This document shows, piece by piece, positions 15,551-55,768 of a stretch of 64,000 nucleotides of DNA (positions are counted from its first letter, which is position 1; each line of letters begins with the position of its first letter). A model generated the notes under the pieces. The model did no database searches and was not told the DNA's origin. It worked only from the letters and a program-made list of their open reading frames with translations. The DNA lies in the NCBI GenBank assembly GCA_023823795.1, contig CP085710.1, positions 4,924,001 to 4,988,000 of the forward strand, written 5' to 3'. The position numbers and the translations under genes were made by a program. This stretch comes from Bacillus sp. F19 (GTDB taxonomy: Bacteria; Bacillota; Bacilli; Bacillales; Bacillaceae).

Positions 15551-16516
15551 AAAAATTCCTATTTCTAACTGCATTTGGCCATTTTATCGTTGATGCAGCT
15601 ACTTTATAAAAGAAATTCAGCTGCATTGGGTTTTAGACCTGGTCCCAAAGCACCCAACTCGCAGAAATCGCCATTCAATTCGCGAAAAAGGGCATCCAAT
15701 TCGAAAACATAGATTTGAAACGAAAAAACAATATTAAAATGCCTATTTCTAACTGCAGTTGACCATTTTATCGTTGATTCAGCTATCTTTAAAAAAATTT
15801 AACTACATTGGGTTTCAGACCCGGTTCCAAAGCACCCAACTCGCAGAAAACGTCATTCAATTAGCAAAAACCCTTCTCCAATTCACAGGAATCAGGGTTC
15901 AACTCGCAAAAAAGGACATCCAATTCGCAAACTTCGATTTCAAACGAAAAAACTACATAAAAATGCCTATTTCTAACTGCAGTTGGCCATTTTATCGTTG
16001 ATTCAGCTATCTTTATAAAAAAAATTTAACTGCATTGGGTTTCAGACCCGATTCCAAAGCACCCAACTCACTGGAAACGCCATTCAATTAGCAAAAACCC
16101 TTCTCCAATTCACAGGAATCAGGGTTCAACTCGCAAAAAAGGACATCCAATTCGTAAACTTCGATTTCAAACGAAAAAACTACATAAAATGCCTTTTTTC
16201 TAGATGCCGTTGGCTATTTATCGTTGATGCAGATAACTTTATAAAAGACATTCAGCTGCATTGGGTTTCAGACCCGGTTCCAAAGCACCCAACTCGCAGA
16301 AAACGTCATTCAATTAGCAAAAACCCTTCTCCAATTCACAGGAATCTCGATTCAACTCGCAAAAAAGGACATCCAATTCGCAAACTTCGATTTCAAACGA
16401 AAAAACTACATAAAAATGCCTATTTCTAACTGCAGTTGGCCATTTTATCTTGATTCAGCTAAAAAAAATTTAACTGCATTGGGTTTCAGACCCGATTCCA
16501 AAGCATCCAACTCGCA
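15551..16516. repeat. Nested tandem repeat array (about 4.5 units of 184-227 bp)
   Basis: Units start at the motif CCTATTTCTAACTGC or its variants at 15558, 15742, 15966, 16192 and 16419; the last is partial. Inside each unit a 21 bp sub-repeat beginning CAAYTCGC recurs: three times in unit 1 (15655, 15676, 15697) and five times in each of units 2-4. The 40 bp length difference of unit 1 is thus explained by loss or gain of two sub-repeats. A constant block near CATTGGGTTTCAGACC separates the sub-repeat clusters. Short open frames here are by-products. Confidence 0.92.
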
Positions 16517-24797: not shown

Positions 24798-25000
24798 GCA
24801 AATAAACTTTGTTTTCAGCTAAAAAGGGGCATATATAGGTACAAAACTTCAGTAATGGCGAAATACACAAATATGAATTCATCTACTTGGCTTAATGATT
24901 CCGGATTTCAGCTAAATAATAAAAGATTTACGCTATAAATCATGGGAATTAAGCTAATAAAATGTCATTTTAGGCTATAAATAAGGTACAGGACTATTCA
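24798..25000. repeat. 21 bp-phased GCTA motif array
   Basis: GCTWAWAA-type motifs start at 24890, 24911, 24932, 24953 and 24974, exactly 21 bp apart each time. Earlier members at 24798, 24818, 24839 and perhaps 24860 are 20-21 bp apart. The sequence between motifs is not conserved. The array fills most of the ywhB-ywgA gap, which has no gene. Confidence 0.75.
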
Positions 25001-25111
25001 AATCTGCTCAATTCCAAGTCATTATCATAACTGCTGCATCTTCTTCTTGCGCTTGCGCTGCCCCTCCCTGAGAATAAAAATCCCGCAGCCAAATAGGACC
25101 GCGGGAACTCT

Positions 25112-33092: not shown

Positions 33093-33225
33093 GCTTCAGC
33101 CCACCTTTTTTTCCTATTTTACCATGTATTGTATGATTGGGATAATAGATTTGCAGCTAAAACTCTCTTGATTTTTTGCTCCGATTCAATTCTCGACAGG
33201 CAGATCCTGATTCGGAACACTCTTA

Positions 33226-33290
33226 TTATCGAATTCACAGGCTTCTTATCGATTTCTAAGATTTATTATCGAATATCACTGTTTTATTTC
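33226..33290. repeat. 20 bp-phased TTATCGA motif array
   Basis: TTATCGA starts at 33226, 33246 and 33266, with TATTTCGA in register at 33286: exact 20 bp steps. Variant members (TTCGGAA at 33211, TTCTCGA at 33190) may precede it. No gene was seen in this gap. Confidence 0.65.
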
Positions 33291-33324
33291 GAATTGATTA
33301 CCACTTCCCTTTTTCAAAAAAAAG

Positions 33325-54700: not shown

Positions 54701-55768
54701 TCAGTGAGAATCGTGTGCTGAATGATCTTCAGTCTGTTCTTCTGATTCATGTTCTGAATGATCTGTTTCCTGTTCGGAGTGGTCTTCTCCATGTTCTGAA
54801 TGACCTTCTGATTTAATAGAATGATCGATGTTCATTTCTTTATTTGGATCTAATTTCTCTAAATGATCCACTTCATCATGCTTGTGCAATTCATAGCCGG
54901 ATTGCTCGCGGACTCTTACTGCATATTCTGAGTCTTTCGAGTGATCCACCCAGCCAAGATGCGTGTTAGAGAATGTCATTTTTCCGGTTGTTCCCGGAAG
55001 CATTAGCTGATCATATTGATCTTGTGTTAATTCAGGAGCAGAGTCTTTCGTTTTCTCTACCCAGTCTTCAAATTTATCTTCAGGCATAGCTTCTACATTG
55101 AATGTGTGTCTTTCAAAGCCTTTACCTGTAAAGTTTGCATTTCGTCCTGCATATGTTCCAGGCTCATCTGCCTGAAGGAAAAGCTTTGTCTGCATTCCTG
55201 ACATCGCATATTTCTGTCCGCCTAATTGAGGAATCCAGAATGCTGTCATCGTATCAGCAGATGATAGTTTAAATTCAACTGCACGATCTTCAGGAATGTT
55301 TAAGTAGTTAACTGTTTCAATCCCCTCTTCTTCATAAGAGAAAATCCATTTCCAGTCAACAGATGTAGCATGTATGACTAAAGGTGCCTTGTCTTTTGAA
55401 GACTCAGGAGCCTCTTCTAGTGCATAGATGGTTTGCACTGTAGGAATTGAAAGTGCAATAACGATAAGGATTGGAATAACCGTCCATACGATTTCAAGGA
55501 ATTTGCTTCCTTCCATTTCAGGCGGTTCATATTCCATGTTGTCTTTGCGCTCACGATACTTCACAACAATGATAGTAAACAGAACAAAAACAACAGCTAG
55601 AATGAATAGCATAAACCCTATCGACAAGAGAATAAGGTCACTTTGTGCAGCTGCAACTGGCCCTTTCGGATCTAATACGACGAGTTCACTGCATCCGCCA
55701 AGTAAAAAAACAGAGAGTAATAGACCTAACGCTAAAAATGGTTTAAACAGCTTGAACACCAGGTTCAC
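54701..55768 (-). CDS. qoxA: Cytochrome aa3-600 menaquinol oxidase subunit II, His-rich tail
   Basis: This 355-residue lipoprotein has the lipobox LGGC (cysteine near residue 26), two membrane helices and a periplasmic-side cupredoxin domain. That domain lacks the CuA cysteines, as expected for a quinol oxidase. It starts [55 protein letters not shown]. The last ~40 residues ([33 protein letters not shown]) are an unusual His/Glu/Asp-rich extension; other QoxA proteins I recall end earlier. The tail could bind copper or other metals. It is the first gene of qoxABCD. Confidence 0.95.

What the first reader, a model, noticed from the sequence alone, without database searches (positions are those of the whole stretch)
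24798..25000. Motif recurring every 21 bp between ywhB and ywgA
GCTA-type motifs at 24890, 24911, 24932, 24953 and 24974 are exactly 21 bp apart while the DNA between them is unconserved; earlier members are at 20-21 bp. 21 bp is two helical turns, so all motifs face one side of the helix. The same spacing appears with different motifs at 15655-16400 and, at 20 bp, at 33226-33286. This suggests a class of helically phased elements, perhaps protein-binding or curved DNA.
Basis: partly seen in the sequence, partly recalled or inferred. Interest (0 to 1): 0.85.

Follow-up and report, generated by a model that had tools for sequence, protein, structure and literature searches.

The report
Helically phased 21-bp intergenic motif arrays
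Short DNA motifs repeated two helix turns (20-21 bp) apart sit behind genes in several Bacillaceae; each array has its own motif, motif and spacing look conserved by selection, and what binds them is unknown.

Summary
The window lies in a Metabacillus-type genome. Between ywhB and ywgA a GCTA-type motif recurs five times at exactly 21 bp. It belongs to a genome-wide class: in an 844-kb sample, four-unit arrays number 22 at 21 bp (0.6 in shuffles), 10 at 20 bp (1.4) and 0 at 22 bp (0.4). Four 200-kb Fictibacillus stretches give 55 at 21 bp against 0.0. B. subtilis-group and B. pumilus-group loci gave none.

Each array has its own ~11-bp motif, variable spacers and usually 3-6 units. In Fictibacillus arrays sit at gene 3' ends, above all between convergent genes. 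One gene end carries different motifs in different genera. Orthologous arrays look constrained: motif 8/204 changes, spacer 6/40, flank 98/912; gap openings 0/756 inside, 21/1569 outside in one species pair, not significant in the other. Uniform minisatellite decay, coding heptads and Tn7-type transposon ends fit poorly.

Best reading: one-face arrays of sites for sequence-specific proteins, probably architectural or insulating. The binder is unidentified. Fictibacillus arrays carry TGTCGA heads that match the Spo0A-box core. Eight paper searches found no description.

The parts
24884..24994 (+). Core 21-bp array, five units (motif starts 24890, 24911, 24932, 24953, 24974), family A
   Evidence: closed in all six frames
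24818..24883 (+). Weak possible earlier members of the array (clear only at 24818)
   Evidence: by eye; lag 21 weaker when they are included
25081..25106 (-). Terminator-like hairpin of ywgA, between the array and that gene
15552..16516 (+). Second array region, motif CAATTCGCAAA at 21 bp, inside a 182/226-bp tandem repeat
33216..33295 (+). Third array, motif TTATCGAATT at 20 bp, four units

Best explanation
The element is a double-stranded array of usually 3-6 sites of about 11 bp, placed on one face of the helix at two-turn spacing behind gene 3' ends. Sequence-specific proteins bind it, probably side by side and cooperatively, each motif family having its own reader. The array most likely acts as an architectural or insulating patch in the gap behind terminators (anchoring or bridging DNA, or stopping read-through or supercoil spread). 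Shown: phasing, genome-wide recurrence, 3'-end and convergent placement in Fictibacillus, no clear strand preference of the shared scaffold, slower change of motif columns than of flanks, and different motifs at one gene end in different genera. Inferred: that proteins read it, cooperativity, birth by tandem duplication with later drift of the spacers, and the role.
For: Excess at 20-21 bp. Family C two-unit matches: 23 of 23 in G002 and 16 of 16 in G006 spaced 21 bp although 19-22 was allowed; in G000 33 at 21 and 23 at 19, none at 20 or 22 (counted by hand from the lists). Motif/remainder identity 0.82/0.42 against 0.73/0.52 for simulated uniform decay, 110 arrays. With arrays also seen in a third genome: G043-G044 motif 8/204, spacer 6/40, flank 98/912, motif v flank P = 0.0015, 5 sites; G041-G042 motif 29/288, spacer 13/59, flank 242/1287, P = 0.0003, 7 sites. 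Gap openings in G043-G044, all 9 sites, 0/756 inside and 21/1569 outside, P = 0.0005. Placement in Fictibacillus: convergent 27 (8.0 expected), divergent 2 (12.2), codirectional 28 (36.8) and there toward the upstream stop, 15/12/1 by thirds. Scaffold orientation in codirectional gaps 31 same, 21 opposite.
Against: No binder known. In the G041-G042 pair gap openings do not differ (4/743 v 18/1637, P = 0.25); read from G044 the spacers changed little (1/22). An earlier, biased test was weaker (motif 34/638, flank 193/2332, P = 0.012, with 23 v 8 changes showing ascertainment bias). The 33.2-kb array has three gap openings against G006. Family F1 is strand-constant, 20 of 20 arrays, many of them orthologs, which a double-stranded element does not need. 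In the own genome placement is not clearly biased (convergent 6, 3.9 expected). Many motifs need many readers.
Confidence: 0.55

Rival explanations
1. Neutral minisatellites: 20-21 bp tandem duplications that slowly decay, without function.
For: Long, recent tandem expansions of family C exist (23-37 recognised units). L018 holds about ten near-identical units. Site 0 shows near-perfect 20-bp repeats that differ in all four Fictibacillus species.
Against: Motif and spacer contrast exceeds uniform decay, 0.40 v 0.21. Motif columns change more slowly than flanks. A sharp preference for 20-21 bp is not explained.
Confidence: 0.15
2. Ends or remnants of small mobile elements: the repeats are transposase-binding sites behind a defined terminal sequence (TGTCGA in Fictibacillus, GTTCACANTTWTRCGGAATTA in family C).
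For: Defined heads on one side; families dispersed over many places; presence and absence between related species.
Against: No inverted second end or target-site duplication was seen in the aligned sites. The Tn7/Mu-type transposase domain PF09299 is found in 1 of 10 genomes, the window's own, and in none of the five Fictibacillus genomes; other transposase families were not searched. Constraint on old copies.
Confidence: 0.12
3. DNA-topology sites: helically phased, bendable DNA for gyrase or another wrapping protein that takes up supercoils behind genes, motif identity being secondary.
For: 10.5-bp A+T wave within the unit, spacer middle A+T 0.57 v edges 0.70, P = 9e-8 (orthologs not removed); convergent and 3'-end placement; motif differs freely between places.
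Against: Within an array one specific motif is repeated and conserved, which bendability alone does not ask for. In the own-genome sample lags 10 and 11 show no excess (z 0.2 and 1.7); in Fictibacillus they do (5.3 and 8.9), but so do many other lags.
Confidence: 0.12
4. Heptad-coding or formerly coding repeats (7 codons = 21 bp).
For: Arrays of period 21 have slightly more open frames than shuffles, 1.82 v 1.38, 62 arrays.
Against: Arrays of period 20 throughout exist without an excess of open frames, 1.41 v 1.53, 17 arrays. The window array is closed in all six frames.
Confidence: 0.03

Closest known systems
Iterons and centromere-like arrays of plasmids (recalled, not tested)
   Same: Direct repeats at about two helical turns, read by a cognate protein.
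   Different: Here many chromosomal places behind genes, many motifs per genome, variable spacers, no replication or partition gene noted beside them (not searched systematically).
BIME/REP elements with gyrase or IHF sites in enterobacteria (recalled)
   Same: Intergenic, at gene 3' ends, dispersed.
   Different: REPs are palindromic; these are direct repeats with a two-turn pitch and place-specific motifs.
Tn7/Mu-type transposon ends (recalled)
   Same: A terminal sequence followed by direct repeats of about 20 bp.
   Different: Head on one side only; PF09299 in 1 of 10 genomes.
Spo0A box (0A box, core TGTCGAA; PMC3485338, passages)
   Same: Fictibacillus heads contain TGTCGA, often doubled at 10 bp; tandem spacing of 10 bp in known targets is recalled only.
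   Different: Beside arrays at gene 3' ends, not tested in promoters; no TGTCGA enrichment beside arrays of other genera (3 v 1.8 expected, 52 arrays).
Minisatellites
   Same: Tandem, with some recent expansions.
   Different: Motif conserved, spacers diverged beyond uniform decay.

Membership tests
Phased direct-repeat protein-binding array (iteron-like, as a way of working) | Direct repeats at whole helical turns | tested here: met
Phased direct-repeat protein-binding array (iteron-like, as a way of working) | Motif constrained, spacer free | tested here: met
   motif below flank in both species pairs, spacers near flank rate in 3 of 4 runs; few sites (4-7 per run)
Phased direct-repeat protein-binding array (iteron-like, as a way of working) | A cognate binding protein | not testable with these tools
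   none identified
Tn7/Mu-type transposon end | Transposase with Mu-transpos_C domain in the same genome | tested here: not met
   1 of 10 genomes
Tn7/Mu-type transposon end | Two inverted ends and a target-site duplication | tested here: inconclusive
   one-sided heads, no duplication seen by eye in the eight sites aligned
Minisatellite decaying neutrally | Decay uniform over the unit | tested here: not met
Heptad-coding repeat | Open reading frame and multiples of three | tested here: not met
   period-20 arrays
Known RNA family | Match to an Rfam model in the window | tested here: not met
   0 matches at gathering score
Spo0A-bound element | 0A box core TGTCGA beside the array | tested here: inconclusive
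   enriched in Fictibacillus (44 v 4.1 expected), not in the other genera tested
Spo0A-bound element | Spo0A occupancy | not testable with these tools
   needs ChIP or footprinting

The most novel reading that the evidence does not exclude
An undescribed class of bacterial chromosome element: on the order of a hundred or more short one-face protein arrays per genome, fixed in place at gene 3' ends but free in sequence, whose motif is exchanged as a set while place and two-turn pitch stay. It would mean several paralogous array-reading proteins with fast-changing specificity that serve as interchangeable insulators or nucleoid anchors.
Probability: 0.35. Interest if true: 0.92.

Novelty: new variant of a known kind. 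Interest (0 to 1): 0.78.

Why it matters
A strongly non-random, apparently unnamed class of intergenic DNA in a well-studied family suggests a layer of chromosome organisation or 3'-end control that may have been missed because the model organism's group seems to lack it (0 arrays in 56 kb of intergenic DNA of B. subtilis-group loci). It is directly testable: fish for the protein with one array. It could also be a source of spurious repeat ORFs in annotation.

Tried and rejected
Gap against plasmids: no match. Rfam on the window: none. Transposon ends: followed through heads, ortholog sites and PF09299, then set aside. Coding heptads: open-frame counts. RNA-level element: scaffold orientation 31 v 21; RNA folding of the window array z = -1.8 (+ strand) and -2.3 (- strand), not convincing. 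First selection tests were biased toward the genome in which arrays were found and were replaced. Common scaffold AA-NNYC-R-C-S-GAAAWA over 37 motifs: information 5.25 v 3.6-4.2 for six column-permuted controls, which had fewer restarts (4 v 12), so suggestive only. K-mers near own-genome arrays showed no common head. Arrays of exactly 22 bp are rare but not absent: searches show none beyond an N run, one, two, of which one (L215) looks like a clean 22-bp array.

Papers. Ten searches: eight for such arrays listed nothing that describes them; two for Spo0A boxes. I saw listings for all, and passages of PMC3485338 and PMC4168254. Subscription papers and preprints are not in that library.

Limits. 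Genes were called by my own codon-usage script. Own-genome figures come from 844 kb of 5.59 Mb. Loci L071-L170 (100 loci, 9-20.5 kb) include orthologs and some genomes twice (for example L084 and L093), so counts are not independent. L108 has an N run counted as an array at every period. Genus groups were assigned by me from record titles. In one search arrays over 35% different were dropped (two in the G043 run and two in the G042 run with third-genome ascertainment), also those not alignable over 80%; this lowers motif and spacer rates alike.

Full report
What was checked. The five motifs at 24890-24974 are exactly 21 bp apart. The gap lies between the convergent genes ywhB (ends 24701) and ywgA (ends 25112), with a terminator-like hairpin of ywgA at 25081-25106.

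Own genome. It has 5.59 Mb in two contigs; the nearest named relatives are mostly Metabacillus. In intergenic DNA of 380 kb plus the window, without the 15.4-16.6 kb region, lag 21 has z = 11.1, the highest of lags 4-89. In 844 kb, four-unit arrays (score 0.5 or more) number 22 at 21 bp (0.6 in shuffles), 10 at 20 bp (1.4), 7 at 19 bp (1.5), 0 at 22 bp (0.4). Periods 12-14 have many hits and many in shuffles. A separate excess at 26 bp, 10 v 0.1, is a different class of 52-bp tandem repeats. By extrapolation the genome would hold on the order of a hundred arrays.

Families in the own genome. A, GGCTAAWWAA (this window, L003, L056, L020 twice, L070); a related GGMAAGTAAA set; B, CAATTCGCAAA (window 15.6 kb, L008); C, AAAGTCTCGGAATTA (L061, L067, L060, L007, L018 and a degenerate one in L070); E, TTATCGAATT (window 33.2 kb). 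A strict two-unit pattern for A found only 2 places genome-wide, so A is degenerate. Family C was found in 3 of 41 genomes, G000 and its relatives G002 and G006. Its matches are spaced 21 bp in 23 of 23 (G002) and 16 of 16 (G006); G000 has 33 at 21 and 23 at 19, none at 20 or 22. Most of the 19-bp steps lie in long arrays with 23-37 recognised units.

Other genera. In 100 loci (L071-L170, 1.97 Mb, 449 kb intergenic) 53 arrays at 21 bp and 15 at 20 bp stand against 1.2 each in shuffles, 1 at 22 bp against 1.0 (one N-run locus is in every figure). Intergenic regions with an array at score 0.55: Fictibacillus 27 in 55 kb, Pseudalkalibacillus and neighbours 6 in 14 kb, G034 4 in 16 kb, Metabacillus-like 10 in 89 kb, Rossellomorea 4 in 83 kb, Fredinandcohnia-like 2 in 42 kb, other Bacillaceae 5 in 31 kb, Heyndrickxia 1 in 4 kb, own sample 18 in 201 kb, B. 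subtilis group 0 in 56 kb, B. pumilus group 0 in 52 kb, Brevibacillus 0 in 6 kb. In 20 further loci from other genera and families there are 4 arrays at 20-21 bp in 3 loci (G028, G010, G011), none in shuffles, and 2 at 22 bp. Four 200-kb Fictibacillus stretches have 55 at 21 bp (0.0 in shuffles) and 13 at 20 bp (0.2); lag-21 z = 21.1.

Same place, other motif. Behind ywgA the array reads GCTA in G000, G002 and G006; ACTGATAAAA in Bacillus sp. PAMC26568 (L093, the same contig as G003); AAAAGTCACAATCC in G034; TTTCTAGGATTAA in L152 and L153; TATGCTGAAT at 20 bp in Rossellomorea aquimaris (L118); AACTTGCGGA in L105; G001 and G007 have other, inverted repeats there. Most of the other loci scanned showed no array there at the threshold. 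Among four Fictibacillus genomes, 66 arrays were compared with three other genomes each: 100 comparisons found an array at the ortholog place, 65 none, 33 no ortholog. Several places hold different motifs (sites 0, 9, 11, 29, 30, 44). At site 9 one genome has an F1-type head followed by units of another family.

Anatomy. Fictibacillus arrays of period 21 (48 arrays) have 3-6 units, spacings 166 at 21 and 3 at 20; own genome 57 at 21, 6 at 20, 3 at 19. Identity in the best 11 columns is 0.82, in the rest 0.42, chance 0.29; simulated uniform decay gives 0.73 and 0.52 (110 arrays, orthologs included). The unit has two A+T peaks 10-11 bp apart. A weak scaffold is shared by 37 non-redundant motifs. 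Heads: in Fictibacillus TGTCGA is the most enriched 6-mer within 70 bp of arrays, 44 v 4.1, present upstream of 16 of 17 F1 arrays, with 16 pairs at 10-bp spacing. Of 19 tandem TGTCG pairs at 9-10 bp in 800 kb, 15 are beside detected arrays, two more beside array-like sequence by eye. Other Fictibacillus families share a second head, GAACGTGTAATAAATAAAAGAACACGTACCGTAAAA. TGTCGAA is the Spo0A-box core (PMC3485338, passages). I hold this as a lead only, since other genera lack it.

Placement and strand. Fictibacillus: 27 convergent (8.0 expected), 28 codirectional (36.8), 2 divergent (12.2); own genome 6 (3.9), 11 (11.2), 2 (3.9). In codirectional gaps arrays lie toward the upstream stop, 15/12/1 and 6/5/0 by thirds. 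Scaffold orientation is 31 same and 21 opposite; in convergent gaps 20 same as and 37 opposite to the nearer gene. F1 alone is always in one orientation, 20 of 20 arrays, orthologs included. I therefore treat the class as double-stranded and leave F1 unexplained.

Constraint. With arrays also seen in a third genome: G043-G044 motif 8/204, spacer 6/40, flank 98/912 (P = 0.0015); the reverse run 5/168, 1/22, 84/743 (P = 0.0005); G041-G042 29/288, 13/59, 242/1287 (P = 0.0003); the reverse run 33/278, 15/60, 263/1209 (P = 0.0001). The runs of one pair are not independent. Gap openings, all sites: G043-G044 0/756 v 21/1569 (P = 0.0005), G041-G042 4/743 v 18/1637 (P = 0.25).

How it most likely works. 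Constraint on motif and mostly not on spacer, in DNA behind genes, with a fixed two-turn pitch, points to proteins bound on one face of the helix. Change of motif at a fixed place suggests that what matters is to have an array there, not which one. I propose an insulating or anchoring patch with several reader proteins per genome. Readers, cooperativity and role are inferred, not shown.

Noticed in passing
L006:16550, L061:5002, L003:19810, L058:4833, L057:2159, L056:6369, L067:7419, L066:12154, L004:19325, L062:15293: Second repeat class in the own genome: intergenic tandem arrays of 52 bp (two 26-bp halves, about five helix turns), with several sequence families.
   Followed up: no
G000:C1 896668-897701 (L254), 4476172-4476860 (L255), 4628607-4629283 (L256): Long family-C arrays of 23-37 recognised units with 19- and 21-bp steps, 0.7-1.0 kb each; centromere-like in look, function unknown.
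   Followed up: partly
window 15552-16516: 226-bp tandem repeat of about four copies whose units each contain several 21-bp motifs.
   Followed up: partly
G041-G044 (for example G043 66936, G041 160496, 145694, 77362): A conserved ~36-bp second head, GAACGTGTAATAAATAAAAGAACACGTACCGTAAAA, beside arrays of GCGTGAAAC or GAGCGAAAC in Fictibacillus.
   Followed up: no
L227:19608 and L227:11989 (G010), L215:7299 (G028): Clean 20-bp arrays (GCAAATAAA and others) in G010, and a 21-bp array in G028 whose motif itself contains TGTCGA; G028 also has a 22-bp array.
   Followed up: no
G000:C1:3565993-3566190 (L211): A Mu-transpos_C (TnsB-like) gene in the own genome only, of 10 genomes searched.
   Followed up: no
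window 54741-54809: 21-bp tandem repeat reported by TRF, three units, inside a called gene (54701-55768, minus strand; gene bounds seen); probably coding and unrelated.
   Followed up: no
L061, L067, L060, L007: Palindromic CTTTTTCTAGAAAAAG-like sequence recurs near family-C arrays; perhaps another dispersed repeat.
   Followed up: no
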